From Hyphomicrobiales bacterium (GTDB lineage Bacteria > Pseudomonadota > Alphaproteobacteria > Rhizobiales > Beijerinckiaceae): a DNA stretch of 64,000 nt. This document shows positions 59 through 63,890 of the stretch, piece after piece. The DNA lies in contig SEEM01000005.1 in assembly GCA_004144595.1 (NCBI GenBank), forward strand, positions 124,001 through 188,000, written 5' to 3'. Each line of letters opens with the position of its first letter. The stretch's first letter is position 1. The position numbers were made by a program, and so were the translations under genes. The notes under the pieces are model-generated. The model ran no database searches and was not told the origin of the DNA. It saw only the letters and a program-made list of their open reading frames with translations.

Positions 59-156
59 CGTCATGCCCGGGCGAAGCGCAGCGCAGACCCGAGAATCTCA
101 GCCAGGATAGGGCGCGTCCTTGTCCCGAGATGCTCGGGTCAAGCCCGAGCATGACG
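59..156. repeat. Family A paired-palindrome repeat (REPIN-like), copy 1
   Basis: Two hairpins in inverted orientation. The left module begins cgtcatgcccggg and runs to cgagaatctcag. The right module reads gagatgctcgggtcaagccc then gagcatgacg. Near-identical copies lie at 5393, 11051, 43328 and 57646, all between genes. Bases 1-58 hold nothing I can identify. Confidence 0.8.
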
Positions 157-184
157 CCCATGCACCCGAGGTGCATTTTCCCTC

Positions 185-215
185 TTGAACCTGAAGTGGC
201 TACAGCTTGTAGAGA
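185..215 (+). promoter_or_regulatory. MerR-family (ZntR/CadR-type) promoter-operator
   Basis: A -35-like TTGAAC (185-190) and a -10-like TAGAGA (210-215) are separated by 19 bp, the long spacer typical of MerR-regulated promoters. The spacer carries a dyad: aacctgaag (188-196), tgg, ctacagctt (200-208), with 7 of 9 positions complementary. This is the expected control site for a Zn/Cd/Pb exporter. The cognate MerR gene is not in the window. Confidence 0.65.
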
Positions 216-250
216 CATGTCCCGTAGCGAAAGAGAGACGGAGACACGTC

Positions 251-2644
251 ATGGCCACCGAGCCCGAAACCGTCACCCAGACCCTGTCCTGGAAGGTCGG
301 CGGCATGGATTGCGCAAGCTGCGCGGCAAAGATTCGCGGCGCAGTGGAGCGGCTGCCGGGCGTCAGCGACGTCAAGCTCTCGGTGATGTCGGAGACGCTG
401 ACGCTCGCGCTCGGCACCGGCGCGACCACGCCGGAAGCGATCGAAAAGCGCGTCAACAGCCTCGGTTACACCACCGTCGCGCTGGCAGCCACGGCCACTA
501 AGCGCGCCGCGCCGAAACAGGATGCCTGCGGCTGTGGACATGACCATGGCGACCACGCGCATGACCACAGCGGCCACGCACGTGATCACGGCCAGCATGA
601 GCACGGCGACGCCTGCTGCTCGGGCGATGCGCATGGTCACGATCACAAGCACGATCATTCGGACCACGATCACGCCGGCCATGACCACAGCCCGAAGCCT
701 CCCAAGCAGCCCGCCGCCGCGAAGGATCACGGCCACGGCCTGCCCGGCCATGTCCATGAAGCCACGCCCGATGGCGCAAGCTGGTACCAGACGGCCAAGG
801 GCCGCCTCGTCATCGCGACGGGCGTTTTCCTCGGCGCCGCCTACGCCGCCGGACTGATCTGGCCGGGCATCGGCCACTGGGCCTTCATCCTGGCCTGTAT
901 CGTCGGCGTCGCTCCGGTAGCGAAGCGCGCCTTCGCTGCGGCCCGCGCGGGCATCCCCTTCACGATCGAGATGCTGATGACGATCGCCGCCATCGGCGCT
1001 CTCTTCATCGGCGCGGCCGAGGAGGCGGCGCTGGTCGTCTTCCTGTTCGCGGTCGGGGAAGTGCTGGAAGGCGTCGCGGCCGACCGCGCCCGTGCCTCGA
1101 TCCGCGCGCTCGGCGATCTCGTTCCCAAGACCGCCATCGTCGAGGAGAACGGCGCGACCCGCCAGGTCGATGCCGCGAGCCTTGAGGTCGGCCAGACCGT
1201 GCTGGTCCGTCCCGGCGACCGCATCCCGGCCGATGGCGAGATCATCGAGGGCATCTCCGGCATTGACGAGAGCCCGGTCACCGGCGAATCCGTGCCCAAG
1301 ACCAAGGGCGTCGGCGAACCCGTCTATGCCGGCTCGGTCAACCGCGAGGCGGCCTTGCGCGTGCGCGTCGACAAGGCGGCGCAGGACAACACCATCGCCC
1401 GCATCATCCGCCTGGTCGAGGAGGCGCAGGAGGCACGCGCGCCGACCGAGCGCTTCATCGACCGGTTCTCGCGCTGGTACATGCCGGCGATCGTCGGGCT
1501 CGCCGTGCTGGTCGCGCTGGTTCCCCCGCTGCTGCTCGGCGCCGAATGGTCGGTCTGGATCTACCGGGCGCTGGCGCTGCTGCTGATCGGCTGCCCATGC
1601 GCGCTGGTCATCTCGGTTCCCGCGGCCATCGCAGCCGCCCTCTCGGCAGGCGCCCGTCAGGGCCTGCTCATGAAGGGTGGCATCGTCATCGAGACAGCCG
1701 CCAAGACCGGGCTCGTCGCCTTCGACAAGACGGGCACGCTGACCCAAGGCAAGCCGCGTGTCACCGATATCGTAGCGCTCGCCGGCAGCGAAACCGAGCT
1801 CCTCGCCTTCGCCGCCGCGGTCGAGCATGGCTCGTCGCACCCGCTGGCCGAGGCCGTAATGGAGCGCACCCGCACCGACGGTATCGCCTACAAGCCTGCA
1901 ACCGAAGCCGCCGCCCTGGCCGGCCAGGGCGTTACAGGCAAGGTCGATGGCCGCGCCGTCTTCGTCGGCGCACCGCGCCATGCCGAGAGCCGCGCGCCCT
2001 TCGACAAGCGGGCCCGCGTCACGGCTGGAGAGCTGGAAGCCGCCGGCAAGACCGTGGCCGCCGTCATAGTCGATGGCGCGCTCGCCGGCTTCATCGCGCT
2101 CCGCGACGAACCGCGCGAGGATGCTGCCGCTGCGATCGCGGAGCTAAAGGCGATGGGCATCCGCTCGATCATGCTGACCGGCGACAATGCCCGCACCGGC
2201 GCCGCCATCGCCGCCGGCCTCGGCATGGAGCACAAGGCCGAATTGATGCCCGACGACAAGGTCGCGGCGATCAAGGCCTTCTCCGCCGAGACGCCCGTGA
2301 TGATGGTCGGCGACGGCATCAACGACGCGCCCGCATTGGCCGCTGCCAGCATCGGTATCGCCATGGGCTCGGGCACCGATGTCGCGCTGGAGACCGCCGA
2401 TGGCGCGGTGCTGAAGAGCCGCGTGCGCGATATCGCGGCGATGATCCGGCTCGCGAGGGGCGCGATGGCCAATATCCGCACGAACATTACGATCGCGCTT
2501 GGGCTCAAGGCCGTGTTCCTGGTCACCAGCGTGCTCGGCTACACCGGCCTCTGGGTCGCGATCCTCGCCGATACCGGCGCGACCGTGATCGTCACCGCCA
2601 ACGCGCTGCGGCTGCTGCGCTTCGACGCGAGCAAGGTGAACTGA
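251..2644 (+). CDS. zntA: Heavy-metal-translocating P-type ATPase (Zn/Cd/Pb exporter)
   Basis: This 797-residue P1B-type ATPase exports divalent soft metals across the inner membrane. An N-terminal HMA domain has the GMDCASC metal motif (Cys21 and Cys24). A very His/Asp-rich segment follows at about residues 91-175 and probably binds metal. The transmembrane core carries the CPC motif (448-450), the phosphorylated Asp is in DKTGT (Asp492), and the SSHP, TGDN and GDGINDAP motifs follow. CPC with this HMA type favours Zn/Cd over Cu, but substrate is not certain. I chose the ATG at 251 because GGAG lies 7 nt upstream; an in-frame TTG at 185 lies inside the promoter. Regulation is probably by a MerR-type activator. 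Confidence 0.93.
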   Translation: MATEPETVTQTLSWKVGGMDCASCAAKIRGAVERLPGVSDVKLSVMSETLTLALGTGATTPEAIEKRVNSLGYTTVALAATATKRAAPKQDACGCGHDHGDHAHDHSGHARDHGQHEHGDACCSGDAHGHDHKHDHSDHDHAGHDHSPKPPKQPAAAKDHGHGLPGHVHEATPDGASWYQTAKGRLVIATGVFLGAAYAAGLIWPGIGHWAFILACIVGVAPVAKRAFAAARAGIPFTIEMLMTIAAIGALFIGAAEEAALVVFLFAVGEVLEGVAADRARASIRALGDLVPKTAIVEENGATRQVDAASLEVGQTVLVRPGDRIPADGEIIEGISGIDESPVTGESVPKTKGVGEPVYAGSVNREAALRVRVDKAAQDNTIARIIRLVEEAQEARAPTERFIDRFSRWYMPAIVGLAVLVALVPPLLLGAEWSVWIYRALALLLIGCPCALVISVPAAIAAALSAGARQGLLMKGGIVIETAAKTGLVAFDKTGTLTQGKPRVTDIVALAGSETELLAFAAAVEHGSSHPLAEAVMERTRTDGIAYKPATEAAALAGQGVTGKVDGRAVFVGAPRHAESRAPFDKRARVTAGELEAAGKTVAAVIVDGALAGFIALRDEPREDAAAAIAELKAMGIRSIMLTGDNARTGAAIAAGLGMEHKAELMPDDKVAAIKAFSAETPVMMVGDGINDAPALAAASIGIAMGSGTDVALETADGAVLKSRVRDIAAMIRLARGAMANIRTNITIALGLKAVFLVTSVLGYTGLWVAILADTGATVIVTANALRLLRFDASKVN

Positions 2645-2662
2645 CGACGGGTCGTCGGCATT

Positions 2663-2714
2663 CGCTTGTCATTCCGGGGCGGGCCGCAGGCGCGAAGCCC
2701 CGGAATGACAAGCG
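2663..2714. repeat. Family C palindrome (18-bp perfect stem) between convergent genes
   Basis: The arms cgcttgtcattccggggc (2663-2680) and gccccggaatgacaagcg (2697-2714) are perfectly complementary. The hairpin lies between the convergent zntA and a small unknown gene and may end or stabilise both transcripts. Longer relatives with the tcat...ccgg / ccgg...atgac ends occur at 18842 and 21612. Confidence 0.75.
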
Positions 2715-2728
2715 GTTCAAAAAGCGTC

Positions 2729-3079
2729 TCACACCCGGATATCGGCGAGCGCTCCGGTCTTGGTCGCGTTGTCGCCCTTGGCTTCCATCTGCTTCAGCAT
2801 CTCGTCGCGGATCTTGCTCATCACGTCGGCCTTCGCCTTCGAGTCCAGCTTGTTGAACTGCTCCTCGGTCATGCCGAGCTTGGCGAGGATAGCGGCCTGA
2901 ACCCGCTCCTCCGGGGACATCCGTGCGATCTTGAGGAACTCTTCTTCGGTTGAAGAGGATGTCGTCGTGGCCTTCGCGGAAGCGCTGCTGCTGCTGGTGC
3001 CACTCTCGTTCTGCGAGCCTGGCTTCACCGGATTCGTGAATGGCAGGCTGATCGGCCGGTTGATGATCGGGTTCGACAT
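2729..3079 (-). CDS. Small hydrophilic protein of unknown function
   Basis: A 116-residue soluble protein with no recognised domain. The first 45 residues are Ser/Thr-rich and probably disordered (SSSSASAKATTTSSSTEEE). The remainder is charged and helical (FLKIARMSPEERVQAAILAK). No signal peptide or membrane segment. The ATG at 3079 has AAAGGAGC just upstream, which makes it a better start than the in-frame codon at 3133. It converges on zntA. Confidence 0.7.
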   Translation of the reverse strand: MSNPIINRPISLPFTNPVKPGSQNESGTSSSSASAKATTTSSSTEEEFLKIARMSPEERVQAAILAKLGMTEEQFNKLDSKAKADVMSKIRDEMLKQMEAKGDNATKTGALADIRV

Positions 3080-3634
3080 GGCTTGCTCCTTTGAGCAAAC
3101 CGGCAGGCAAGCGCCGGGCCGCCTCGGCAACACCAGGAAACCAACAAAAAATCAGTACCTTGTAAGCGGAAACAGGCGCTTCGCGGCCGCCATGGTCCAA
3201 GAATACGGCAAGTTCTGCCCGGCAAACGCTGCCGAATCGGAAGCGCCAGACCACCCTAGGCAGCATTAATCCGAGCCGCTGGGATCGCAGCGGAGCGACT
3301 TTGCTGCAACGCAAAATTGCCTTGGAGCGACAACTCGCCACTTAGCACCTGCAACACGCCTATTAATGAAGCATAGTTTTGACGGCCGCGTTGGGGTGAG
3401 CTCATTTGCATCATTAACAGGCTGTCTATTTCCTCAATTTCGCCGCAAGCGTTACCCTCAACGCAGGGCGGTCGACGAAAATGACCGAAACCTTAACTTG
3501 TCATGCATTATATGCATATCGGAGCTGAGCAAGTGCCCCTGTTGGAAGCAGGCTGTCCGGTTTATATGCAGCGCACAACGAGATTATCGCTGTGGGCGCC
3601 GCCCCGGTCCGGAATATCGCTAAGGAAAACCACC
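3080..3634. other. Intergenic region, locally AT-rich, with ATGCAT dyad
   Basis: Divergent 555-bp gap. No reading frame here has convincing coding character. Around 3360-3560 the sequence is less GC-rich than its surroundings and contains ATGCAT-TAT-ATGCAT at 3503-3517, a perfect dyad about 120 bp upstream of the DUF1127 start. It probably holds the promoters of both flanking genes; I cannot place a confident -35/-10 pair. Confidence 0.5.
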
Positions 3635-3790: not shown

Positions 3791-3893
3791 AGGCTTCCGA
3801 ATGAGAACCGCCGCGCACAGGGTGCGGCGCGTTCCGTGTAGTTTCTCCTGAGGCTCGTGTTTCCCCTCCCCTCGAGCTTCGGTCGAAGAGCGA

Positions 3894-3919
3894 ATGCCCG
3901 CCTCACGGCGGGCATTTTG
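3894..3919 (+). terminator. Rho-independent terminator
   Basis: Nine-bp stem atgcccgcc / ggcgggcat with a tcac loop, followed by ttttgcattt. It lies about 100 bp after the DUF1127 gene and ahead of trmFO. Confidence 0.85.
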
Positions 3920-5392: not shown

Positions 5393-5498
5393 CGTCATTC
5401 TCGGACGAAGCTAAAGCGCAGACCCGAGAATCTCAGCCAGAAGGAAGCTCTGGCGCCTCCGCGTCATGAGATGCTCGGGTCAAGCCCGAGCATGACGG
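5393..5498. repeat. Family A paired-palindrome repeat, copy 2
   Basis: Starts cgtcattctcgg, contains gacccgagaatctcag, and ends atgctcgggtcaagcccgag then catgacg. It lies between the convergent 3' ends of trmFO and the NDUFAF6-like gene, whose stop codon is only about 5 bp beyond it. Confidence 0.8.
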
Positions 5499-11046: not shown

Positions 11047-11050
11047 GGGC

Positions 11051-11137
11051 CTCATTCTCGGGCTTGACCCGAGAATCTCAGTCCGGAAGAGGCGCCTTCT
11101 TCTGCCCGAGATGCCCGGGTCAAGCCCGGGCATGACA
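11051..11137. repeat. Family A paired-palindrome repeat, copy 3
   Basis: ctcattctcgggcttgaccc then gagaatctca forms the left hairpin; gagatgcccgggtcaagccc then gggcatgaca forms the right one. This is the clearest example of two complete inverted modules. It starts 4 bp after the DUF815 stop codon. Confidence 0.85.
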
Positions 11138-15528: not shown

Positions 15529-15633
15529 CGTCGTCCGGCCATGCCATCGCTGCGGAATGCAGCGTTGGATGCTCTAGACCGGGATCGCGCGCGAGGGAAC
15601 CACCGAGATCGGCATTCCGCGCACCAACCGCAT

Positions 15634-15723
15634 CATGGTCGGGCCTGTCCGACCATTCACGTCTTCACCCTTCGAGCGTGGCGTTCAAGACGTGGATGCT
15701 CGCCACAAGGGCGAGCACGACGG
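15634..15723. repeat. Family B paired-palindrome repeat, copy 1
   Basis: Runs from catggtcgggcctgtccgac through cattcacgtcttcaccctt to acgtggatgctcgccacaag then ggcgagcacgacgg. It fills most of the tatC-serS gap. Family B is recognised by the acgtc/gacgt inner arms. Bases 15529-15633 show nothing else. Confidence 0.75.
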
Positions 15724-18841: not shown

Positions 18842-18947
18842 CCGTCATCCCGGCAAGCGAAGCGTGGCCCCGCGATACATCATGGGGCTCCGGCGCTCTA
18901 CGACGGATCCCGGGTCGGCGCCGCTTCGCGGCTTGTCCGGGATGACG
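18842..18947. repeat. Family C paired-palindrome repeat, copy 2
   Basis: Outer ends cgtcatcccgg and ccgggatgacg are complementary; inner segments gcgaagcgtggccccg and cggcgccgcttcgcgg are partly so. It lies between scpB and the inserted ABC ATPase gene. Confidence 0.7.
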
Positions 18948-21611: not shown

Positions 21612-21718
21612 CGTCATTCGGGGCGGAGGGGAGCGAAGACCGTGAATCCATCTTAAGGCACAGCACCCTTCGATGGGTTTCGGATCGGCGTCGCTGACGC
21701 GGCTGGTCCGGAACGACG
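21612..21718. repeat. Family C-like paired-palindrome repeat, copy 3 (diverged)
   Basis: Starts cgtcattcggggcgg and ends ggtccggaacgacg; the outer ends are imperfect complements. It lies between nagZ and the 3' end of the TRAP binding-protein gene. Confidence 0.6.
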
Positions 21719-28189: not shown

Positions 28190-28291
28190 CACGCTCAAGC
28201 CTGACCCGAGCATCTCAGGACAGCAAGGCTCGATAGCCGCCTCCGGCAGGCGCTTCGCGGGTCTTCGCTACGCTCCCCCGGAGAATGACGC
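28190..28291. repeat. Family A-like repeat remnant
   Basis: Contains acgctcaagcctgacccgag then catctcagga (left module, altered) and ends ccggagaatgacgcc. The right module is disrupted. It lies just after the erpA stop. Confidence 0.5.
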
Positions 28292-31187: not shown

Positions 31188-31280
31188 CCGTCATGCTCGC
31201 CCTTGGGGCGATCATCCACGTCTTGAACACGCCCTCGATCGCTGAAGACGTGGATGGTCGGGACAAGCCCGACCATGACG
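31188..31280. repeat. Family B paired-palindrome repeat, copy 2
   Basis: ccgtcatgctcgcccttggg then gcgatcatccacgtcttgaa on the left; gaagacgtggatggtcggga then caagcccgaccatgacg on the right. It lies between the convergent aminotransferase and DoxX-like genes. Confidence 0.8.
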
Positions 31281-41701: not shown

Positions 41702-42469
41702 ATGCGCGGACTTGCAGGCAAGGTCATTCTCGTCACCGGCTCCTCCACCGGCATCGGCCATGCCATGGCCGAGCGCCTCGTCGCCGAGGGCGCCAAGGTG
41801 CTGATCCATGGCCGCGACGCGGCGGAAGTCGACGCCGCTGTCGCAAAGCTCGGCACCGCGACCGCCGGTGCGACCGGCGATCTCGCCGAGCCCGCGACGG
41901 CGCAGGCCATTGTCGACGCGACCGTCGCCGCCTTCGGCCGCATCGACGGGCTCGTCAACAATGCCGGCATCTATCCGCGCGGTATCCTGACCGAGACCAC
42001 CGCGGCCTTCTTCGACCACATGTTCGCGATCAACACCCGCGCGCCTCTGCTCTGCGCCGAAGCGGCGATCCGCGCCTTCCGCGCCCAGAAGTCGCCGGGC
42101 GCGATCGTAACGGTCGGCTCGATCAACGCCTATTGCGGCCTCTCGAACCTCACCGTCTATTCGATGTCCAAGGGCGCGCTGATGACGATGACGCGCAACC
42201 TCGCCAATACGCTAGGCCCGGAGCGCATCCGGGCCAACCAGCTCAACGTCGGCTGGACCTGGACCGCCAACGAGGACGCGACCCAGCAGCGCGAGGGCCG
42301 CAAACCCGGCTGGCAGAACCATCTCCCGCTCCGCGATGCCCCGACCGGTCGCATCATGCAGCCCGAGGAGATCGCCGCCCACACCGCCTTCTGGCTCTCG
42401 GAGGACAGCGCGCCGGTCTCGGGGCAGATCTACGAGGTCGAGCAGTTCCCGGTCATCGGGCGCGGATGA
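41702..42469 (+). CDS. Short-chain dehydrogenase/reductase
   Basis: A 255-residue SDR oxidoreductase. The cofactor motif is TGSSTGIG, NNAG follows, and the catalytic residues are in VGSINAYCGLSNLTVYSMSKGAL (Ser, Tyr and Lys of YxxxK). Substrate is unknown. ATG 41702 gives the standard N-terminus; the open frame continues 30 codons upstream through the divergent VOC gene region. It overlaps the next gene at ATGA. Confidence 0.93.
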   Translation: MRGLAGKVILVTGSSTGIGHAMAERLVAEGAKVLIHGRDAAEVDAAVAKLGTATAGATGDLAEPATAQAIVDATVAAFGRIDGLVNNAGIYPRGILTETTAAFFDHMFAINTRAPLLCAEAAIRAFRAQKSPGAIVTVGSINAYCGLSNLTVYSMSKGALMTMTRNLANTLGPERIRANQLNVGWTWTANEDATQQREGRKPGWQNHLPLRDAPTGRIMQPEEIAAHTAFWLSEDSAPVSGQIYEVEQFPVIGRG

Positions 42470-43314
42470 GCGAGGTCTCCCGGGCCGTCTTCGAACCCTG
42501 GCTCGTCCGCTGGAGACTGTTGCCCGATGGAGCGCCAATCGCAACCCATGCCAGCCACCTGCTGCCCGTGCTGCGGGACGGCGCGCCCGCCATGCTGAAG
42601 CTGCCAGAGGTCGACGACGAGCGCCGCGGCTACCTGCCGCTGGAATACTGGCACGGCAATGGAGCCGCCCGTCTGCTCGCCCGCAGCCAGAACGGCGAGG
42701 CGATGCTGATCGAGCGCGCCACCGGCAAACGCTCGCTCGCCGCCATGGCGCGCAGCGGTGCCACGGGCGACGATGAAGCCACGACGATCCTTTGCGACGC
42801 CATCGCGGCCCTGCAAAAACCACGCGGCCCGGCTCCTGCCGGGCTGATCCCGCTCGACATCTGGTTCAGGGACCTCTTCCCGGCAGCGGCCCTGCAAGGC
42901 GGCCTGCTCGCCCGGGCCGCGGCCGAGGCAAGCGCGCTCCTGCCCACCCAGCAGGAGATCCTGCCGCTCCATGCCGATCTGCATCACGACAATGTCCTGG
43001 ACTTCGAGGGGCGCGGCTGGCTCGCCATCGACCCGAAATCCGTGATCGGCGACCGCGCCTTCGACTACACGATCCTGTTCTGCGATCCCGACCTCGCCGA
43101 CCCCGAGCCGCCGGTCGCAGTCGCACCCGGCGCCTTCGAGCGCCGACTGGAGATCGTGCTGGCAAGATCGGGACTGGAGCGTCAGCGGCTGCTGCGCTGG
43201 ATCATCGCCTGGTGCGGGCTATCGGCGAGTTGGTTCCTGGAGGACGAGGACCCGCTGGCGCAGGTCAATTTCGCCGTTGCCGAGCGGGCGATCGCGGCCT
43301 TGGATGCGCCCTAG
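42466..43314 (+). CDS. APH(6)-family (streptomycin/hydroxyurea kinase-like) phosphotransferase
   Basis: A 282-residue kinase. The catalytic loop is LPLHADLHHDNVLDFEGRGWLAIDPKSVIGD, with HxDxxxxN and IDPK matching APH(6)/hydroxyurea phosphotransferases (StrB-like). The N-terminal half LLPVLRDGAPAMLKLPEVDDERRGYLPLEYWHGNGAARLL carries the ATP-Lys. Its ATG overlaps the SDR stop by 4 bp. GC content and context look native, so a housekeeping small-molecule kinase is as likely as resistance. Confidence 0.85.
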   Translation: MSEVSRAVFEPWLVRWRLLPDGAPIATHASHLLPVLRDGAPAMLKLPEVDDERRGYLPLEYWHGNGAARLLARSQNGEAMLIERATGKRSLAAMARSGATGDDEATTILCDAIAALQKPRGPAPAGLIPLDIWFRDLFPAAALQGGLLARAAAEASALLPTQQEILPLHADLHHDNVLDFEGRGWLAIDPKSVIGDRAFDYTILFCDPDLADPEPPVAVAPGAFERRLEIVLARSGLERQRLLRWIIAWCGLSASWFLEDEDPLAQVNFAVAERAIAALDAP

Positions 43315-43327: not shown

Positions 43328-43422
43328 CCGTCATTCTCGGGCAAAGCGAAGCGCAGACCCGAGAATCTCGTGACGAGAAGCCACTGGTTTCCGAGATGCT
43401 CGGGTCAAGCCCGAGCATGACG
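43328..43422. repeat. Family A paired-palindrome repeat, copy 4
   Basis: cgtcattctcgggcaaagc... to gacccgagaatctcg on the left, and gagatgctcgggtcaagccc then gagcatgacg on the right. It lies between the convergent APH-like gene and the biotin carboxylase gene. Confidence 0.82.
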
Positions 43423-45495: not shown

Positions 45496-46224
45496 TTATA
45501 GCCCGCCCGCGGCGTCTGTCTGCGCCTTGTTGCGCAAACCGGATTGGGACGCTTCCGATGGCACGCTCCGCCGCAGCGAGCGCCAGATCGCCCATGTCGC
45601 CTGGAAGCAGATGCCGGCGACGACGAGGTCGAACAGATATTCCGGCCAGCGCACCGGCGCGACGCGCGCGGCAAGCCCGACCAGCGCGAAGCCGGTGGTC
45701 GAGATCGTGTCGTTGCGGCTCGACAGCCAGGTCGCCTTGATCACCGGGTTCCGCTCGCGCCGGAAGCGCCAGAGCGCGCCGACGACGAGGAATGCGATGA
45801 CGATGGCGCTCGCCGCCGCAAAGCCGAGCGTCCAGATCTCGATCGGCCGCGGCCGGGCGATCTTGTCCCAGAGATCGTAGAGCGTGTGCAGCCCGGCGAC
45901 CGCCATGACGGCGCCGATCGCGACCGCAGCCAGCCGCTCGATCCGCGCGTCGCGGCCGAAGATGATCGCCGCAATGCCGTAGAGCGCGACGTCGTAGACC
46001 CAGTCGACGCCGTCCTTGAAGAGCTGGGCATTGCCGATGGCGAGCGCCCAGGCGACGGTCGCCACCGCCTGTACCAGGATGCCGAGCGCGATGGCCCAGA
46101 TGGTCAGCGTATAGGCGCGGGCGACGGCGGGGCTCGATGCCGAGCCGTTTATGCCTCCGTCATGGTCGGGCTTGTCCCGACCATCGACGTCTTCAGGAAC
46201 TTGCGGCAAACTGGCGGCTGACAA
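45496..46224 (-). CDS. CDF-like cation transporter, N-terminus encoded by a repeat
   Basis: A 242-residue membrane protein of a small CDF/cation-transporter branch: FKDGVDWVYDVALYGIAAIIFGR, AVMAVAGLHTLYDLWDKI, NPVIKATWLSSRNDTISTTGFALVGL, with about six hydrophobic segments. No ATG or GTG start precedes the first helix. The only in-frame starts are TTGs at 46224 or 46209, which give EDVDGRDKPDHDGG, the translated family B repeat. Either the repeat has become coding sequence or the native start was lost. Its stop is 31 bp from the mccA start on the same strand. Confidence 0.65.
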   Translation of the reverse strand: MSAASLPQVPEDVDGRDKPDHDGGINGSASSPAVARAYTLTIWAIALGILVQAVATVAWALAIGNAQLFKDGVDWVYDVALYGIAAIIFGRDARIERLAAVAIGAVMAVAGLHTLYDLWDKIARPRPIEIWTLGFAAASAIVIAFLVVGALWRFRRERNPVIKATWLSSRNDTISTTGFALVGLAARVAPVRWPEYLFDLVVAGICFQATWAIWRSLRRSVPSEASQSGLRNKAQTDAAGGL

Positions 46225-46312
46225 GGTCGCGCTCCGATGAGAGCTTCGTCTGTCTCATGCCATTGGGAACGGTGGCAAGGCGTGGATGGTCGGGACAAGC
46301 CCGACCATGACG
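46158..46312. repeat. Family B repeat, two separated modules
   Basis: The left module cgtcatggtcgggcttgtcc then cgaccatcgacgtcttcag (46158-46196) and the right module cgtggatggtcgggacaagc then ccgaccatgacg (46281-46312) are inverted copies separated by about 84 bp instead of the usual close spacing. The left module lies inside the predicted transporter reading frame. Confidence 0.75.
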
Positions 46313-46331
46313 ATAGCGGCCGTCGTCGCCC

Positions 46332-52538: not shown

Positions 52539-53513
52539 ATGAACGCCCGCCGCATGCCTCGCTTCCGCGCCCTGCCCCTCCTGGCTGCCGCCGCATTCGC
52601 GGCCCTTGGCGGCTGCGTCGCGCTCGACAACTACCCGTCGAAGGGCGATGCCCGGCCGCATCCCGGCGTCGCGGCGGCCCATCAATATCCGATTCACGGC
52701 ATCGACATCTCACGCTGGCAGGGCGAGATCGACTGGACCGCCGTCAAGGCCGCCGGCACCCGCTTCGTCTACATGAAGGCGACCGAGGGCGGCGACCATG
52801 TCGACCCGAACTTCCGGCGCAACTGGGAAGGCGCGCGCCGGGCCGGCGTGGCGCGCGGCGCCTACCATTTCGTCTTCTGGTGCCGCCCGGCGCATGAGCA
52901 GGCGGTCTGGTTCAAGCAGCAGATCCCGAACGATGCCGATGCGCTGCCTCCGGTGCTCGATGTCGAGTGGAACGGCCATTCGCGAACCTGCCCGCAGAAG
53001 ATCGACCGCGAGCTCGCCCGCGAGAAGATCCAGCTCATGCTGACCGAGCTGGAGCAGCTCACCGGCAAGAAGCCGGTGATCTATACCGACATCACCTTCC
53101 ATCGCGAGGTGCTGGAGGGGCAGTTCAACAACTACCCCTACTGGATCCGCTCGACTGCGGCTCTTCCGGAAACCCGCTACAGCAACCGTCCGTGGGCCTT
53201 CTGGCAGTTCACCACCACCGGCCGCGTGCCCGGCATCAAGGGCGATGTCGATCGCAACGCCTTCTTCGGCAGCGAAAGCCAGTTCGCAGGCTGGCTGCGC
53301 GGCGAATACGATATCGGCACAAGGCGCTGGGACAGGCGCGAGGGGCCGGCACAGCCTGCGCCGGTCCAGCAGGCCCCGCTGCCGCCCCCCTCCGCTCCGG
53401 AGCCGCAGGAACCCGGCGACGTGCCCGTGGCGCGCATACCCGGCAGCGTGCCCGCCGTCGCCTCGACCATGCGGGCCATGGACAATCAGGTCGAGCCCGT
53501 CGTCCTCGACTGA
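52539..53513 (+). CDS. GH25 lysozyme-like lipoprotein (copy 1)
   Basis: A 324-residue lipoprotein (AALGGCVALD lipobox) with a GH25 muramidase domain: HGIDISRWQGEIDWTAVKAAG, FVYMKATEGGDHVDPNF, GAYHFVFW and the catalytic DxE in PPVLDVEWN. It cleaves the glycan beta-1,4 bonds of peptidoglycan or remodels cell wall. The C-terminal about 55 residues are a Pro/Ala-rich tail. It is followed at 120 bp by a paralogue on the same strand. Confidence 0.92.
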   Translation: MNARRMPRFRALPLLAAAAFAALGGCVALDNYPSKGDARPHPGVAAAHQYPIHGIDISRWQGEIDWTAVKAAGTRFVYMKATEGGDHVDPNFRRNWEGARRAGVARGAYHFVFWCRPAHEQAVWFKQQIPNDADALPPVLDVEWNGHSRTCPQKIDRELAREKIQLMLTELEQLTGKKPVIYTDITFHREVLEGQFNNYPYWIRSTAALPETRYSNRPWAFWQFTTTGRVPGIKGDVDRNAFFGSESQFAGWLRGEYDIGTRRWDRREGPAQPAPVQQAPLPPPSAPEPQEPGDVPVARIPGSVPAVASTMRAMDNQVEPVVLD

Positions 53514-53633
53514 GCGGACAGGCGAAATCGGCCCGGTTAACCAAGGCTGAAATTCGTTGTTCGACTGCGCTGCAATTCTAACCGGCGCTTAACCACGCTC
53601 CCCGCATCTGGACCTGTGATGCGGGAGAGACAC

Positions 53634-54602
53634 ATGCCAGCGCGCAAGCTGACCAGTCGACGGACAGGCCTCGGAGCCTTCGCCTTTGCGGCGCTTCTGA
53701 CGTGTTTCGTCGAGCCCGCGCAGGCATTCTATCCGAAGAAGGGCGACAGTGCCCCGCATCACGGCGTCCGCGACGCGCGGCGCAAGGTGATCCAGGGCAT
53801 CGACGTCTCCCGCTGGCAGGGCGAAATCGACTGGGCCCGCGTCAAGGATGCCGGCACGCGCTTCGCCTTCATCAAGGCGACCGAGGGCGGCGACCATCTC
53901 GATCCGAATTTCCGACGCAACTGGGCCGAGGCCAAGAAGCACGGGGTCGCGCGCGGTGCCTACCACTTCGTCTGGTGGTGCCGTCCCGCCAAGGATCAGG
54001 TCCGCTGGATCAAGAAGCACATCCCGCGCGATCCCGACGCGCTGCCGCCAGTGCTCGATGTGGAATGGCAGAACGGCTCGCAATGCACCCGCAAGATCTC
54101 GAAGGAGCTGGCCATGGCCAAGATCAATGAGATGCTGAAGGGCCTGCGCGAGCACACCGGCAAGAAGCCGGTCATCTATACCGACATCAATTTCCACGAG
54201 GACGTGCTGGAGGGCGAGCTCAACGACCACCCCTTCTGGCTGCGCTCGACCGCCGCGCCGCTGGCGAAGCGCTATGAGCGCGACCGCTGGGAATTCTGGC
54301 AGTTCACCACGACCGGCCGCGTACCGGGAATCACCGGCGATGTCGACCGCAACGCCTTCTTCGGCAGCGAGCGCGAATTCGACGCCTGGCGCCAGGGCCG
54401 CTTCGACATCGGCACGCGCAGATGGCATGGCGGCGAACCGAAGGTCGCGACCCGGACGCCGCCACCCACTCCGGCGGGCCTGCGCGCCCCCAAGGAAGCC
54501 GGCGGCACCAAGCTGAAATTCGCCCCGCCCGGCCGGATTCCGAACGCACGCACGGCCGATAACCGCCGCGGTGACGTGACGGGCTCGATCGGACGGCACT
54601 GA
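53634..54602 (+). CDS. GH25 lysozyme-like exported protein (copy 2)
   Basis: A 322-residue paralogue of the preceding gene with the same motifs (QGIDVSRWQGEIDWARVKDAG, PPVLDVEWQNGS) but a conventional signal peptide (FAFAALLTCFVEPAQA) instead of a lipobox. ATG 53634 has GGGAG about 7 nt upstream; an ATG and a GTG lie a few codons earlier. Tandem duplication of a native gene is more likely than phage origin, given codon use and the lack of other phage genes. Confidence 0.92.
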   Translation: MPARKLTSRRTGLGAFAFAALLTCFVEPAQAFYPKKGDSAPHHGVRDARRKVIQGIDVSRWQGEIDWARVKDAGTRFAFIKATEGGDHLDPNFRRNWAEAKKHGVARGAYHFVWWCRPAKDQVRWIKKHIPRDPDALPPVLDVEWQNGSQCTRKISKELAMAKINEMLKGLREHTGKKPVIYTDINFHEDVLEGELNDHPFWLRSTAAPLAKRYERDRWEFWQFTTTGRVPGITGDVDRNAFFGSEREFDAWRQGRFDIGTRRWHGGEPKVATRTPPPTPAGLRAPKEAGGTKLKFAPPGRIPNARTADNRRGDVTGSIGRH

Positions 54603-54699: not shown

Positions 54700-55692
54700 A
54701 TGGTCAGCGACGTCCAATCCCAGTCCGGCATCATCTGGGCCTACCACTTCGACGAGTTCGGGCAGCCGCGCCGGATCGCCCGCGATGTGATGCCGGACCT
54801 CGCCCCGGCCGAGGGCTTCGTCTGGCTGCATCTCGACCTCGTCCACACGCGGGCGCAGAGCTGGATCGCCGAGCAGGGCCTGCCGGATACGACGCAGGAA
54901 GCCTTCCTGTCGCATGAGCCCCACCAGCGGCTCGACCACTCCGCCAATCTCGCCTGGGGCGTCTCGCACGACCTGATCCGCGACATCGCCGACAAATCCG
55001 AGGATGTCGGCGCACTGCGCTGGATCATCGGCGAGAAATTCCTGCTGACCGGCCGGCGCGAGGCCCTGCATTCGATCCGCATGACGGCGGAAGCGCTCGA
55101 TCGCGGCGAGCCGGCCGCGAGCCCGGCCGGATTGTTCGAGCAGATCATCGAATACATCATCGACGACGTGACCGATGCCGTGGTGCGCCTCGTCGACGAG
55201 ACCGACAGCGTCGAGGACCATATCCTGCTCGACCGCCTGCATGACGGGCCGCAGCGCGTCGGCTCGGTCAGGCGCACGGCGGTGCGGCTGCATCGCCAGC
55301 TCAGCGGCCTGCATGTCCTGTTCCGCCGCTTCGCCGAGACGCAGTCGGGCCGCAGCGCTCCGGACGCGGTCAAGGCGGCCGCTTCGCGGCTGCTCCAGCG
55401 TGTCGACGGGCTGCATCACGACGTCCAGTCGGTGCAGGACCGGGCGCGTTTGCTGCAGGACGAGATCGCGGCCCGCTCGGCCAGCCGCACCAACCGGCAG
55501 CTTTATGTGCTCTCGCTGCTGACGGCCCTGTTCCTGCCTGCGACATTCATCACCGGCCTGTTCGGCATCAACGTGAAGGGCCTGCCTTGGGTCGAATCGG
55601 AGGGTGGCGCGGTCTTCGTGGCGGCGACCTGCCTCGCCGCCGCCCTGCTCACCCTCGTCCTGCTCCGGCGCCGGGGCGTGATCGGAAGTTGA
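54700..55692 (+). CDS. CorA/ZntB-family metal ion transporter
   Basis: A 330-residue protein: soluble N-terminal domain (about 1-270), then two C-terminal membrane helices. The loop after helix 1 reads [10 protein letters not shown], the GxN motif of ZntB-like members (CorA has GMN). The C-terminus is short and basic. Zn2+ or Mg2+/Ni2+ transport is likely; direction and ion are not determinable. Confidence 0.9.
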
Positions 55693-57000: not shown

Positions 57001-57093
57001 CGTCATGCTCGTCCCTGTGGCGAGCATCCACGCCTTGACCGCAGCCCTCGAAGGGCAAAGACGTGGATGGTCGGGACAAGCCCGACCATGACG
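57001..57093. repeat. Family B paired-palindrome repeat, copy 3
   Basis: cgtcatgctcgtccctgtgg then cgagcatccacgcct on the left; acgtggatggtcgggacaag then cccgaccatgacg on the right. The right module lies just upstream of the GGCT-like gene and its frame would read MDGRDKPDHDG. Confidence 0.82.
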
Positions 57094-57632: not shown

Positions 57633-57645
57633 CGCCCATCACAGC

Positions 57646-57743
57646 CGTCATGCCCGGGCTTGACCCGGGCATCTCAGGACGAGAAGGGCGCCCTTCCCGG
57701 CGCGAGATTCTCGGGTCCGCGCCAGGCGCAGCCCGAGAATGAC
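57646..57743. repeat. Family A paired-palindrome repeat, copy 5
   Basis: cgtcatgcccgggcttgacc then cgggcatctcag on the left, gagattctcgggtccgcg and gcccgagaatgacg on the right. It lies between the convergent GGCT-like and ABC exporter genes. Confidence 0.82.
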
Positions 57744-57751
57744 GCCCTTTC

Positions 57752-60048: not shown

Positions 60049-60058
60049 GGTACGGGTC

Positions 60059-60478: not shown

Positions 60479-60605
60479 GCCCTCCCCGATTCCGGCCGCA
60501 CCGTGGCGGCTCGCCGCTACAGCGTCAATGCCGGCGCCTTGCCGTGGCGGCGGATGGCGCAGAAGCTGCTTGCCTGAGCCTCGGGCGAAATGGCAGAGCG
60601 ACGGC

Positions 60606-61298
60606 ATGTTCGGCTTCAGCAATCTCGATCTGATCGCCCTGGCGTTCTTCACCCTGTCCTGGTTCGGCTACCATTATGTGGTCGAGATGGGTCCCTATGC
60701 CGTCCGCACGCTGAACATGCGGATGAACCTGCGCCGTGCCCGCTGGATCCGGGAGGCGGCAGCCCGCGAGGTCCGGATCGTCGACACGCAGGTGATGGGC
60801 GGCCTGCAGAACGGCACCGCCTTCTTCGCCTCGACCTCGTTGCTCGCGATCGGCGGCACGCTCGCCCTGCTCAACGCCACCGATCGCGCCGTCGCCATCT
60901 TCAGCGACCTGCCCTTCGTGCCGGTGACCCTTCGCTCCGTCTGGGAGCTGAAGATCATCGGGCTGGTCTGCATCTTCGGCTATGCCTTCTTCAAATTCGC
61001 CTGGAGCTACCGGCTGTTCAACTACTGCGTCATCCTGCTCGGCGCCCTGCCCCCGTTCGACAGCAGGGACGAGCGGGCCATGGCCCATGCGATCCACGAA
61101 ACAATCGAGATGAACATCGCCGCCGGGCGGCACTTCAACCGCGGCCAGCGCGCGTTCTTCTTCGCGCTCGGCTATCTCGGCTGGTTCCTCGGCCCGGTCA
61201 GCTTCATCGGCTTCACCGGCGCCGTGCTCGTCGCAATGTACCGGCGCCAGTTCGCCTCCGACGCGACGCGCGTCTTCAACCATCCGGGAAGCCTATGA
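60606..61298 (+). CDS. DUF599 integral membrane protein
   Basis: A 230-residue protein with about five membrane helices and the DUF599 pattern: DLIALAFFTLSWFGYHYVVE, RTLNMRMNLRRARWIREA, VMGGLQNGTAFFASTSLLAIGG and FKFAWSYRLFNYCVILLGALPP. Function unknown. Its stop overlaps the start of the next gene (ATGA). Confidence 0.88.
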   Translation: MFGFSNLDLIALAFFTLSWFGYHYVVEMGPYAVRTLNMRMNLRRARWIREAAAREVRIVDTQVMGGLQNGTAFFASTSLLAIGGTLALLNATDRAVAIFSDLPFVPVTLRSVWELKIIGLVCIFGYAFFKFAWSYRLFNYCVILLGALPPFDSRDERAMAHAIHETIEMNIAAGRHFNRGQRAFFFALGYLGWFLGPVSFIGFTGAVLVAMYRRQFASDATRVFNHPGSL

Positions 61299-61570
61299 CG
61301 GATCGCGAAACGGAACTGGAACAGACGATGCTGCGGCTCGTGGCCGAGCGCGGGCGCGGCAAGACGGTCTGCCCTTCGGAGGCGGCGCGCGCCGTCGGCG
61401 GCAAGGCGTCGGAGGAGTGGGGGCCGTTGATGCAGCCCGCGCGCAGGGTTGCCGTGCGGTTGATGAAGGAGGGCCGCCTCGTCATCACCCGCAAGGGCCG
61501 CCCCGTCGACCCCGATGATTTCCGAGGCGTCTATCGTCTGACGCTTCCGGAGGATCCGTCGGGGGCTTGA
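61295..61570 (+). CDS. DUF3253 small protein
   Basis: A 91-residue cytoplasmic protein: TVCPSEAARAVGGKASEEWGPLMQPARRVAVRLMKEGRLVITRKGRPVDPDDFRGVYRL. This is the winged-helix-like DUF3253 family. Role unknown. Translationally coupled to the DUF599 gene. Confidence 0.85.
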   Translation: MTDRETELEQTMLRLVAERGRGKTVCPSEAARAVGGKASEEWGPLMQPARRVAVRLMKEGRLVITRKGRPVDPDDFRGVYRLTLPEDPSGA

Positions 61571-61654
61571 ACCCCCGGTGCAGATCTTCGATCCGGCAGG
61601 CCAGCTGCCACGGCCCGAGCGAAACAGGCCAGATGATCGCCAGGGATGGGCGCG

Positions 61655-62443
61655 TCACGGCGCCGGGAAGAGCTCATCGGTATAGCCGGCAAGCCGGTAG
61701 GCCACGAGACCGACCCATTCCTTGAAGCCGTTATCGGCAATCTCGAGAGCGCGCGGCGCGCGGGTGTAAGGCCGGATGAAATCGCCGGGCTCGCCGTTCG
61801 ACCAGAAATCGACCGGAAACGCCTCGACCGCGAATCCCGCCTTGCGGAAGACGCCTATCGAGCGCGGCATGTGCCAGGCCGATGTCACCAGCAGCCAGCG
61901 TTCGCCGGGCTTGGGATCGACGAGCTTGCGCGTGAAGGCGGCGTTCTCGCGCGTGTTGCGCGACTTGTCTTCGAGGATAAGCCGGGCAGGATCGAGGCCC
62001 AGCCCCTCGAACAGCAGCTTGGCGCCGTCCGCTTCGGTCACGGTCGCTTCCGAGATGAGGTTGGCGGCGCCACCGGTGAAGACGACCTTCGCCTGCGGAT
62101 GCAGCCGCGCCAGCTCGACCGCCTTGGTCATGCGCGCCGCAGAGGAGTTCATCGCGACATCGCCGCGCGCGACGCCGACTGCGCCGCCCAGCACGACGAT
62201 GCCGGTCACCGGCCCCTTGCGGGCGTCCTGCTGCGGAAACCGATCCTCCAGTGGGCGCAAAACGATCCGCGGCAGCGGGCTGAAGGCCATCAGGCCCAGC
62301 GCGATGAGCGAGAACAGCCCGACCCAGCGCGCAGGCCGCGCAAAGCGCGTGAAGGCGAGCAGGCTCGAAAGCCCCGCAAGCAGAATCGCCAGGTTGACCG
62401 GGGACACGATGAGCCAGACGACCTTTGAGAGAACGAAGAACAT
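61655..62443 (-). CDS. YdcF/ElyC-family (DUF218) envelope protein
   Basis: A 262-residue protein. Two N-terminal hydrophobic helices precede a DUF218 domain: GIVVLGGAVG, KVVFTGGAANLISEATVTEADG, LILEDKSRNTRENAAFTRKLV and LLVTSAWHMPRSIGVFRKAGF. Homologues such as ElyC influence peptidoglycan precursor metabolism. Probably anchored in the inner membrane with the domain outside or at its face. Confidence 0.88.
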   Translation of the reverse strand: MFFVLSKVVWLIVSPVNLAILLAGLSSLLAFTRFARPARWVGLFSLIALGLMAFSPLPRIVLRPLEDRFPQQDARKGPVTGIVVLGGAVGVARGDVAMNSSAARMTKAVELARLHPQAKVVFTGGAANLISEATVTEADGAKLLFEGLGLDPARLILEDKSRNTRENAAFTRKLVDPKPGERWLLVTSAWHMPRSIGVFRKAGFAVEAFPVDFWSNGEPGDFIRPYTRAPRALEIADNGFKEWVGLVAYRLAGYTDELFPAP

Positions 62444-62604
62444 CGCAAGTCCGGACGGAGGAAAGACTGCAAAGGTCCTACCGCCAAAAGCTGACGGCTT
62501 TCTGAACCGACATCTGCGAACGTCTGCTTCGCCTCTCAGCCCTCATCCTTCGAGACGCCGTTACGCGGCTCCTCGGGATGCGGGCTGCAATAATCCAGCG
62601 GCTA

Positions 62605-63111
62605 TCAGCGAATGATCTGGGGCGGCGATTGCGGGCGGCGTCCGCCGGCTTGCGGCAGCACCTTCGCCAGCTCGATCGCCCGCCCGGCGACCTCCCTCAA
62701 TTCGCAGCCGGCCTGCCGCCCGGCTTGCAGCGCCTCGCGCTGGGTCGCGCCGTAGAAGGCGCATTTCTGCGTGACGTAGCTCTCCCAGGCGAGCTGAAGC
62801 GCGGCCAGCCGGCTCCGCTGGCCGGCATCGAGGGCGCGCCCCGTCACTTGCAGCGCGAGCGTCAGGCGCTCGCGCCATGCCGCCTCCTCGCGCCGGGCGC
62901 AAGCCGCTTCGGCACCGCGCGGATCGTTGCTGGCGGCGCGCACGCAGGCCACCGCCACCGCGCCGATACAGGCCGACGGCGAAGAAGCGCTGTCGCGCAG
63001 GCAGCCGGAGAGCGCCGCCAGATCTGTCCGCAGCATCGGCGAGGTCTGTGCAACCGCGGGCGCGGATGCTGCGAGGCTGCACAGAAGCAGGATCGTCCGA
63101 AAAGCGTTCAT
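62605..63111 (-). CDS. LprI/DUF1311-like secreted protein
   Basis: A 168-residue exported protein with signal peptide (FRTILLLCSLAASAPAVAQ). The mature part has several Cys and a WESYVTQKCAFYGATQREALQAGRQAGCELREVAGRAIEL segment, which resembles DUF1311/lysozyme-inhibitor LprI-type proteins. The MNAF start at 63111 is chosen over an ATG four codons upstream. Function in this species unknown. Confidence 0.7.
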   Translation of the reverse strand: MNAFRTILLLCSLAASAPAVAQTSPMLRTDLAALSGCLRDSASSPSACIGAVAVACVRAASNDPRGAEAACARREEAAWRERLTLALQVTGRALDAGQRSRLAALQLAWESYVTQKCAFYGATQREALQAGRQAGCELREVAGRAIELAKVLPQAGGRRPQSPPQIIR

Positions 63112-63162
63112 GCCGCCCATCATGCCAGCGGCAGCCCGTCGATCAAGCGTGTCGTGGCGACA

Positions 63163-63783
63163 TCACGTGATCGGCAACGGCAGCGCGGCCTGCGCAGCCG
63201 GCCTTGCAAAGACGGTCTCATACCAGCGCTGCACCACCGGCCTTGCAACCCGTTCGACCGGCATGTTGAGCCAGCGATGGACGCCGCAGCCCACTGCGAT
63301 GTCGGCCATGCCGAACTGCGCGCCGGCCAGATAGGGCCGGTCCGCCAGTTGCGCATCGAGGATCGTCATCAGCGCCTCGGCCCGGGCGACGCCATCGGCG
63401 ATCGCTTTCGGATCGGTGAAAGGCAGTACTTTGCGCACGACGCCCCAGAGCACCGGCGCAAGAGCCGGCTGCAACTCCGACTGCATCCAGTCGACCCAGC
63501 GATCGGCCAGCACGCGCCGGGCTGGATCCTCCTCCCAGAGCACGCCCGAGGCATAGCGGGCCGCGAGATAGCGCAGGATGCTGCTCGACTCCCACATGAC
63601 CAGTTCGCCGTCTCGCAGCACCGGAATCTGCCGGTTCGGATTCATCGCCGCGAATTCGGCGGTATCGAGCCCACCATGAGGGCCGCCGACATCGATGCGC
63701 TCGAAAGCCTGTCCGGCCTCCCCGGCGGCCCAGACCACCTTCTGGACGTTGATCGAGCTCAGCCGCCCCCAGATCGTCAGCAT
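63163..63783 (-). CDS. Glutathione S-transferase
   Basis: A 206-residue GST. N-terminal thioredoxin-like domain: LTIWGRLSSINVQKVVWAAGEAG (active Ser/Tyr region) and NPNRQIPVLRDGELVMWESSSILRYLAARY (cis-Pro and SSxI glutathione contacts). C-terminal helical domain follows. Likely detoxification or glutathione-dependent metabolism; class uncertain. Confidence 0.92.
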   Translation of the reverse strand: MLTIWGRLSSINVQKVVWAAGEAGQAFERIDVGGPHGGLDTAEFAAMNPNRQIPVLRDGELVMWESSSILRYLAARYASGVLWEEDPARRVLADRWVDWMQSELQPALAPVLWGVVRKVLPFTDPKAIADGVARAEALMTILDAQLADRPYLAGAQFGMADIAVGCGVHRWLNMPVERVARPVVQRWYETVFARPAAQAALPLPIT

Positions 63784-63795
63784 GAAACCTCCAGA

Positions 63796-63890
63796 CCGTC
63801 ATGCTCGCTCTCGTGGCGAGCATCCACGTCTTAAACACAAATCACGGGGGAGAACGACATGGATGGTCGGGACTAGCCCGACCATGACGG
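63796..63890. repeat. Family B paired-palindrome repeat, copy 4
   Basis: ccgtcatgctcgctctcgtg then gcgagcatccacgtct on the left; catggatggtcgggactagc then ccgaccatgacgg on the right. It sits between the GST start and the 3' end of the carboxylase gene. Confidence 0.8.

What the first reader, a model, noticed from the sequence alone, without database searches (positions are those of the whole stretch)
59..63890. Three families of REPIN-like paired palindromes at gene ends
At least 13 elements of about 50-110 bp recur in the window: family A at 59, 5393, 11051, 28190, 43328 and 57646; B at 15634, 31188, 46158, 57001 and 63796; C at 2663, 18842 and 21612. Each A/B element is two short hairpins in inverted orientation, the arrangement of REPINs. 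Nearly all lie between genes, often between convergent 3' ends. No RAYT or other transposase is in the window, so what moves them is unknown.
Basis: partly seen in the sequence, partly recalled or inferred. Interest (0 to 1): 0.7.

Follow-up and report, generated by a model that had tools for sequence, protein, structure and literature searches.

The report
Paired hairpin repeats after Bosea genes
These are short paired DNA hairpins of a known but poorly understood bacterial repeat kind, scattered just behind genes in a Bosea bacterium; they seem to keep changing places although the enzyme usually blamed for moving such repeats was not found, and different repeat families fill the same few gaps between genes.

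Summary
Confirmed: 13 of the 14 listed sites are paired hairpins (one degenerate); 2667-2710 is a single palindrome. A, B and C all run CGTCAT...ATGACG: head-to-head dimers of CGTC-tagged REPs, a superfamily named in 2013 (PMC3733652) that "apparently lack a dedicated transposase". The organism is a Bosea. The genome holds 126 A-type halves, control 0. Modules occur in 61 of 61 Bosea genomes, a RAYT/Y1 match in 7 of 61, none here or in the four nearest relatives in the tree. Stems covary; 111 dimers show no target duplication; 23 of 27 own elements lie within 30 bp of a stop codon. New: orthologous gaps are refilled by different families. Own against G110: 9 gaps filled in both, 3.0 expected, 6 of 9 with different families. 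Across 21 genomes 35 of 38 filled cells lie in 4 of 16 gaps; one gap needs 9-11 changes on the tree. Four own copies are absent from both nearest relatives, one of them best read as a gain. Ordinary CGTC-REP dimers by kind; turnover without a resident Y1 enzyme and gap reuse are the interest. The mover is unknown.

The parts
59..156 (.). A dimer (left half degenerate, long loop; right half perfect)
   Evidence: nhmmer family A 4e-15; R1 53.3 bits for the right half, 19.7 for the left
2667..2710 (.). single 44-bp palindrome TGTCATTCCGGGG..CCCCGGAATGACA between convergent genes; C-like, possibly the fused outer ends of a dimer (inference)
5393..5497 (.). A dimer between convergent genes; G110 carries an internally deleted remnant of about 30 bp at the same place
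11050..11137 (.). A dimer between convergent genes; G110 has a B dimer in the same gap
15631..15722 (.). B dimer (left half degenerate); G110 has B in the same gap
18843..18947 (.). C dimer; gap without an element in G110
21612..21718 (.). C dimer; gap without an element in G110
28193..28290 (.). degenerate A dimer between convergent genes
   Evidence: nhmmer 1.5e-05
31189..31280 (.). B dimer between convergent genes; G110 has C in the same gap, G116 an A-like remnant by eye (not scored by the profile)
43329..43422 (.). A heterodimer between convergent genes; the gap is A in G111 and G103, B in G110, G100 and G104, E in G101 and G115
46158..46312 (.). B dimer with a long spacer; the gap is B or C in relatives
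57001..57093 (.). B dimer, 93 bp, best read as gained in this lineage; the gap is A, B, A+B, D, E or empty in relatives
57646..57744 (.). A dimer between convergent genes; G110 and G116 have an intrinsic-terminator-like hairpin there instead; more distant G099, G104 and G113 have A
63797..63889 (.). B dimer; gap without an element in G110 and G116

Best explanation
The elements are head-to-head heterodimers of CGTC-tagged REPs. Each half is CGTC + a hairpin beginning AT (9 bp in A and B) + a short tail (CTC in A, CCA in B); the two halves of a dimer nearly always carry different stems and are joined by a freely varying spacer. They behave as non-autonomous, REPIN-like mobile elements: the dimer is copied as a unit (inferred from shared length and related spacers), is inserted without a detectable target duplication (shown for 111 dimers), lies mainly right behind stop codons (shown), and keeps its two hairpins while the spacer drifts (shown; selection or homogenisation as the cause is inferred). 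The folded single strand is the likely substrate (inferred from stem covariation, absence of target duplication and analogy with REP transposases). The enzyme is not a Y1/RAYT protein found in the same genome (shown for 54 of 61 Bosea genomes within the sensitivity of two profiles); either another enzyme acts on these hairpins or a Y1 enzyme visits and is lost (inferred). A few gaps between genes tolerate or attract palindromic dimers of any family, so they are refilled again and again (reuse shown, reason inferred).
For: CGTC tag, 9-bp stem starting AT, 5-nt loop, head-to-head arrangement, as defined in PMC3733652. 126 A halves in the genome against 0 in the control. Stem covariation: 98.4% of cells paired against 79.5% shuffled, 131 double-change cells against 37.1. 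13 of 27 B dimers are exactly 93 bp; stems of the two halves differ in 38 of 38 A and 24 of 27 B dimers. Matches over about the whole 93 bp of a B element at many places of G110 and G116. Halves 0.88 (A) and 0.90 (B) identical, spacers 0.46 and 0.60, shuffled 0.40 and 0.44. No excess of direct repeats at the ends of 111 dimers for lengths 1-14. B inserted inside an A spacer in G118 and G104. Y1 0 in own genome; 7 of 61 Bosea genomes in the union of two profiles against modules in 61 of 61. At gap 56984 own is filled while G110, G116, G100 and G114 are empty, in a group with support 100/100.
Against: Few near-identical full copies exist, so current mobility is not shown directly; polarity rests on parsimony at 5-10% divergence, with no strain-level filled/empty pair. 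Of four own copies absent from G110 and G116 only one was checked against further relatives in its own group; at gap 57633 more distant species also carry A, so retention with losses is possible. Intergenic flanks are too diverged to align exactly at the empty sites looked at. The ten family genomes with a weak, long (RAYT-like) Y1 match have more modules than the rest (P = 0.016), which leaves room for a past or occasional Y1 role. Own against G116 the 5 shared gaps mostly hold the same family (1 of 5 without a shared family). Different-family overlap with G110 alone is only modestly above chance (6 against 3.0, P = 0.027). The nested insertion comes with a spacer deletion. One covariation measure (number of pairs with a double change, 5 against 4.9) shows no excess. 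The own assembly is a draft of 431 contigs with 5.25% estimated contamination.
Confidence: 0.57

Rival explanations
1. Relics: CGTC REPs were spread by a RAYT-like enzyme that is now lost, no new copies form, and the family is dying out (one of the two hypotheses of PMC3733652).
For: No Y1 match in own genome; spacers diverged, few recent duplicates; 16 of 25 own elements have no element in the same gap of G110, which losses could also produce; module numbers differ widely, which fits loss too.
Against: At gap 56984 own is filled while four relatives of its group (support 100/100) are empty: one gain or several losses. Three more own copies are absent from both G110 and G116: gaps 57633 and 63797 of the window and contig 53, 9349-9465. 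Module numbers in this Y1-free group run from 10 (G114) and 25 (G100) to 92, 103 and at least 119.
Confidence: 0.23
2. The elements are kept for a job at gene ends (transcript end, mRNA protection, supercoil relief); gaps that need such a structure get one, whichever family comes along.
For: 23 of 27 own elements lie within 30 bp of a stop codon; unrelated families occupy the same gaps; hairpins covary and are conserved; G110 and G116 have a terminator-like hairpin where own has an A dimer; tandem gaps with an element have no canonical terminator in 36 of 36 cases.
Against: Convergent gaps with an element have canonical terminators as often as those without: 9 of 27 against 28 of 104, P = 0.63; tandem gaps 0 of 36 against 36 of 501, P = 0.16, or against 33 of 352 gaps of at least 80 bp, P = 0.058. 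Gap 56984 is empty (0-33 bp) in 6 of 19 species. No T-run follows the window's hairpins.
Confidence: 0.25
3. MITEs of a DDE-type insertion sequence with CGTCAT ends.
For: Inverted ends CGTCATNCTCGGG and a nearly fixed length in B.
Against: No target duplication in 111 dimers; no pair of outward single modules 260-3500 bp apart, so no gene between such ends, in the 1.96 Mb examined (total).
Confidence: 0.07
4. A Y1 enzyme of the sporadic TIR-flanked type, or one carried on a visiting replicon, moves CGTC dimers in passing.
For: 7 of 61 Bosea genomes carry a Y1 match; weak association in the family.
Against: The four Bosea Y1 loci examined for inverted repeats sit between ATTACGGTGACA-type ends unrelated to CGTC modules; 0 modules in 6 Bosea Y1 loci; a clear module pair in only 1 of 20 family Y1 loci.
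Confidence: 0.15
5. Gaps are swapped by recombination with other Bosea strains rather than by insertion.
For: Whole gap contents differ while the flanking 500 bp are 93-97% identical at the two gaps compared between G106 and G118.
Against: Tracts would have to end near the stop codons on both sides repeatedly; flanking identities around the own gaps compared (87-96%) are ordinary for the species pair. Flank phylogenies were not made.
Confidence: 0.2

Closest known systems
CGTC-tagged REPs, in particular CGTC-3 (Di Nocera, De Gregorio and Rocco 2013, PMC3733652; parts 1-6 of 8 of its text read)
   Same: CGTC end, 8-9 bp stem starting AT, 5-nt loop and CCA tail (B), head-to-head heterodimers, alphaproteobacterial, near gene 3' ends, no flanking transposase
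   Different: A has a CTC tail and, in most dimers, one half with a long loop; gap reuse and gains in a Y1-free group are not described in the parts read; its figure with the family consensus sequences is not held, so the subfamily is assigned from the text
GTAG REPs and their RAYTs in Pseudomonas and Stenotrophomonas (PMC3686654; passages seen)
   Same: Palindromic REPs in repeats; [quoted passage not shown]
   Different: There the replacement goes with a resident RAYT and a GTAG-type tag; whether single gaps are refilled was not seen in the passages
REPINs of Pseudomonas fluorescens (PMC3116915; start of the abstract in a search listing only)
   Same: Paired hairpins described as miniature mobile DNA
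   Different: Cognate RAYT and GTAG-type tag there (recalled); neither here
Caulobacter CerM, Brucella Bru-RS and Sinorhizobium RIME repeats (names recalled; a review that mentions CerM, PMC2229807, was seen as a search listing only)
   Same: Intergenic palindromic repeats of alphaproteobacteria (recalled)
   Different: Not compared here by sequence

Membership tests
CGTC-REP superfamily | terminal unpaired CGTC (or TGTC/CCTC) tag | tested here: met
CGTC-REP superfamily | 8-9 bp stem starting with AT | tested here: met
   first pair AU in 91 and second pair UA in 94 of 95 distinct rows (rows were chosen by a model that has this stem)
CGTC-REP superfamily | 4-5 nt loop | tested here: inconclusive
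   Met by B and by one half of A; the other A half usually has a long loop, and C too. PMC3733652 itself names families with other loops
CGTC-REP superfamily | short tail, mostly CCA | tested here: inconclusive
   B and C have CCA, A has CTC; the paper says 'most' fit CCA
CGTC-REP superfamily | head-to-head dimers predominate, heterodimers in CGTC-2 and -3 | tested here: met
   for heterodimers; single modules were not counted genome-wide
CGTC-REP superfamily | no flanking transposase gene | tested here: met
   (1 of 20 family Y1 loci has a module pair nearby)
REPIN in the strict sense | two REPs in inverted orientation | tested here: met
REPIN in the strict sense | GTAG-type tag | tested here: not met
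   tag is CGTC
REPIN in the strict sense | cognate RAYT in the genome | tested here: not met
   0 matches in own genome
MITE | target site duplication | tested here: not met
   111 dimers, lengths 1-14
MITE | parent insertion sequence with the same ends | tested here: inconclusive
   none in the 1.96 Mb of Bosea sequence examined; whole genomes not examined for it
intrinsic terminator | GC-rich hairpin followed by a T-run | tested here: not met
   sequence of the window elements
any mobile element | present-day transposition | not testable with these tools
   needs strain resequencing or a mobility assay

The most novel reading that the evidence does not exclude
CGTC-REP dimers are living mobile elements moved by an enzyme that is not a Y1/RAYT transposase and has not been recognised, probably one that acts on folded single-stranded DNA, and a small set of gaps behind genes acts as landing places that palindromic dimers of at least five families (A, B, C and the CGTC-free D and E) fill in turn.
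Probability: 0.3. Interest if true: 0.75.

Novelty: new member of a known kind. Interest (0 to 1): 0.47.

Why it matters
The paper that named CGTC REPs (PMC3733652) left two open questions: do new copies still form, and what makes them. Bosea offers a group of five species with 10 to at least 119 modules and no Y1 match, with at least one gain placed on a single branch, so both questions can be tested directly. Gap reuse by unrelated palindromic families also helps to separate 'the enzyme chooses the site' from 'the site chooses what survives'.

Tried and rejected
Terminator replacement: suggested by gap 57633 (terminator-like hairpin in G110 and G116, A in own) but not borne out as a general rule (tandem gaps of at least 80 bp come near, P = 0.058). 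Autonomous parent: no pair of outward single modules with a gene between them. Y1 association: none by flank in Bosea, 1 of 20 family Y1 loci with a module pair; by counts in 99 family genomes any-Y1 against none P = 0.24, but the 10 genomes with weak long matches have more modules, P = 0.016 (the split of the 15 Y1-positive genomes into 10 and 5 was mine). Target duplication: none; inverted similarity of the two flanks was slightly above shuffles (z 1.6 to 2.4) and the outer flanks are C-rich (C 51% next to the tag), left unexplained. Exact empty-site alignment: failed at 5-10% divergence. Viral contigs: 0 exact matches for the A and B half patterns. Plasmids: 5 records, each matching one B element over its 93 bases at 74-79% identity. 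A lax motif classifier gave a few doubtful cells (44 filled of 182); the stricter profile version is the one reported (38 of 182). Literature (open-access library only): no paper holds REPIN, RAYT and alphaproteobacteria together; a search on REP elements, orthology and insertion sites listed two Pseudomonas genome papers, a search on Bosea repeats two papers unrelated by title, none of them opened, so absence of gap reuse in print is not established.

Rows dropped: gaps over 400 bp (several hold genes or an element), gaps over 800 bp, slots with fewer than 5 genomes (3 of 19) in the permutation tests, elements without a called gene on both sides in the location count, dimers over 170 bp or near sequence ends and duplicate flanks; G117 (1756-bp gap) has no label and G103 (too little sequence) is not in the tree. 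The set of 111 dimers includes some from other genera and 8 without a family label.
Full report
What is there. The window holds 13 paired elements (one degenerate) and one single palindrome at the listed coordinates. Apart from degenerate ends all share the outer form CGTCAT...ATGACG. In A the half is CGTC + ATNCTCGGG stem + tail CTC; in most A dimers (25 of 38 exactly) one half has the stem ATGCTCGGG with a short loop and the other ATTCTCGGG with a long loop such as GAAGCGCAGCGCAGA. In B the commonest halves are ATGGTCGGG and ATGCTCGCC (12 of 27) with loop CTTGT and tail CCACGTCTT. C has longer loops and a CCATC tail. A detector for head-to-head dimers finds 8 in the window and none in 5 shuffles or the reversed sequence. 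The nearest named relative of the flanking acyl-CoA dehydrogenase in a scan that kept 80 loci is Bosea sp. WAO, 94% identical, so the genus is taken as Bosea.

Copies and context. The A half occurs at 126 places in the genome against 0 in the control. In 448 kb of own sequence 29 A/B/C elements with genes on both sides were placed: 14 between convergent genes, 13 between tandem genes, 1 between divergent genes, 1 inside a called gene, against 59, 225 and 60 gaps of the first three kinds; of the 27 in gaps with a stop codon 23 lie within 30 bp of it. Genes were called with a simple codon-usage script. No transposase among 60 window proteins scanned.

Structure. Over 95 distinct modules from Bosea and other genera of the family the nine pairs of the stem are kept in 98.4% of cells (79.5% shuffled), with 131 double-change cells (37.1 shuffled); the number of pairs with a double change, 5, is no more than shuffled, 4.9; sliding the partner by 1-3 columns drops pairing to 29-44%. 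The rows were found and aligned with a model of this structure and lean towards it. Six window dimers fold better than their shuffles as DNA and as RNA, z -3.9 to -7.2, with 0 of 200 shuffles as good in 11 of 12 folds and 1 of 200 in the other; B dimers fold as a closed cloverleaf in 5 of 6 folds, two of the three A dimers as one long hairpin. Stems of the two halves differ in 38 of 38 A dimers (one is probably a false detection) and 24 of 27 B dimers; 13 of 27 B dimers are exactly 93 bp. Within the own genome halves are 0.88 (A, 24 dimers) and 0.90 (B, 8 dimers) identical while spacers are 0.46 and 0.60, above the shuffled 0.40 and 0.44. So dimers descend from one another as units, and the hairpins are held while the spacer drifts.

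What is known. PMC3733652 (parts 1-6 of 8 read) sorts most REPs into GTAG and CGTC superfamilies; CGTC REPs are mostly alphaproteobacterial, head-to-head, and 'apparently lack a dedicated transposase'. It offers two hypotheses: extinct CGTC REPtrons with no new copies, or mobilisation by a broad range of transposases. The present elements belong to this superfamily; A departs in tail and in one loop. That REP transposases act on folded single strands is from the abstract of PMC8266576.

Enzyme. Pfam Y1_Tnp: 0 in own genome, 15 of 99 genomes of the family. Modules at E <= 0.01: 73 of 99. Of 32 family genomes with at least 20 modules 25 have no Y1 match; of 19 with at least 60, 16 have none. Against this, the 10 genomes with weak, long Y1 matches have more modules than the rest (P = 0.016). 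In Bosea modules are in 61 of 61 genomes (3 to the cap of about 119) and a Y1 match in 7 of 61 (NF047646 at E <= 0.001; only 1 over its curated cut-off) or 6 of 61 (PF01797); of the 41 genomes with at least 100 modules 36 have none. The four Bosea Y1 loci examined for repeats lie between ends of the type ATTACGGTGACA and six Y1 loci contain no module. In the family, 1 of 20 Y1 loci has a clear module pair. No pair of outward-facing single modules encloses a gene in 1.96 Mb.

Insertion. 111 dimers show no excess of direct repeats at their ends at any length from 1 to 14 (z -2.5 to 1.4). In G118 and G104 a 93-94 bp B dimer sits inside the spacer of an A dimer; with B left out, the G118 remainder aligns with the A element of its relative G099 without a duplication at the junction, though part of the spacer and right half is deleted.

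Gap reuse. Own and G110 share 234 alignable gaps; 25 are filled in own, 11 in G110, 9 in both; expected 3.0 after stratifying by orientation and residual length (P = 5e-5), and 6 of the 9 hold different families (P = 0.027 against the same expectation). Own and G116 share 91 gaps, 12 and 5 filled, 5 in both, but only 1 of these 5 without a shared family, which fits inheritance. In 21 genomes over 20 kb, the 16 gaps with at least 5 genomes give 182 cells, 38 filled, 35 of them in four gaps, each of which holds two to four families (43315: A, B, E; 46210: B, C; 56984: A, B, D, E; 57633: A, D). Shared ancestry inflates such a test; on the tree gap 56984 alone (19 labelled species) needs 10 changes, shuffled mean 11.6, as low in 18 of 200, and 9-11 under other labellings. 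The three close relatives G118, G106 and G099 hold A+B, E and A. D and E are palindromic dimers without the CGTC end, so homology between elements does not explain these swaps.

Gains. In the group own, G110, G116, G100, G114 (support 100/100), which has no Y1 match, gap 56984 is empty in all but own. At gaps 57633 and 63797 of the window and at own contig 53, 9349-9465, G110 and G116 also lack an element, but for these no or contrary evidence from further relatives exists: at 57633 the more distant G099, G104 and G113 carry A. The first case is best read as a gain, which speaks against the extinction hypothesis; loss or a short recombination tract is not excluded.

Function. Elements do not replace terminators as a rule: canonical terminators are as common with as without them in convergent gaps (9 of 27 against 28 of 104, P = 0.63); in tandem gaps they are absent with elements (0 of 36 against 36 of 501, P = 0.16).

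Verdict. By kind these are new members of a known superfamily. What deserves follow-up is turnover without a resident Y1 enzyme and repeated filling of the same gaps by unrelated palindromic dimers.

Noticed in passing
relatives at window gaps 43315, 56984 and 57633 (D: G105, G118; E: G101, G106, G107, G115): Two further palindromic dimer families without the CGTC end, D (CTTCTCCCC..GGGGAGAAGG) and E (ACCCTCTCC..GGAGAGGGT), use the same gaps; in G118 a D dimer encloses a terminator-like hairpin.
   Followed up: partly
L041/L285 (G084), L281 (G130), L282 (G106), L284 (G099): Sporadic Bosea Y1 transposase genes lie between perfect or near-perfect 19-27 bp inverted ends of the type ATTACGGTGACA, a TIR-flanked Y1 element unrelated to the CGTC modules.
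   Followed up: partly
window 52539-54602: Two neighbouring paralogous genes, each with a glycosyl hydrolase family 25 domain, offset by about 1.1 kb with blocks 71-87% identical.
   Followed up: no
window 55070-55155: ARAGORN calls a tRNA-Ala inside a CorA-like gene (54700-55692); Rfam does not list it, so it is probably a false call.
   Followed up: no
G110 gap orthologous to window 46210-46331: A tandem copy of part of a C element joined by an N in an otherwise one-contig genome, perhaps an assembly artefact.
   Followed up: no
window 42466-43314: Gene with an APH_6_hur domain (aminoglycoside/hydroxyurea kinase family by name) directly before the A element at 43329; no mobile gene beside it among the window proteins scanned.
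   Followed up: no
L064, L065, L071, L078 (other genera of the family): B-type dimers there carry ATGGCCGGG and ATGCCCGGC stems: the same stem position differs from Bosea in both halves, as if the two halves change together.
   Followed up: partly
outer flanks of 111 dimers: The bases outside the tag are C-rich (C 51% at the first position) and the two flanks are slightly more alike in inverted orientation than shuffles; no explanation.
   Followed up: no
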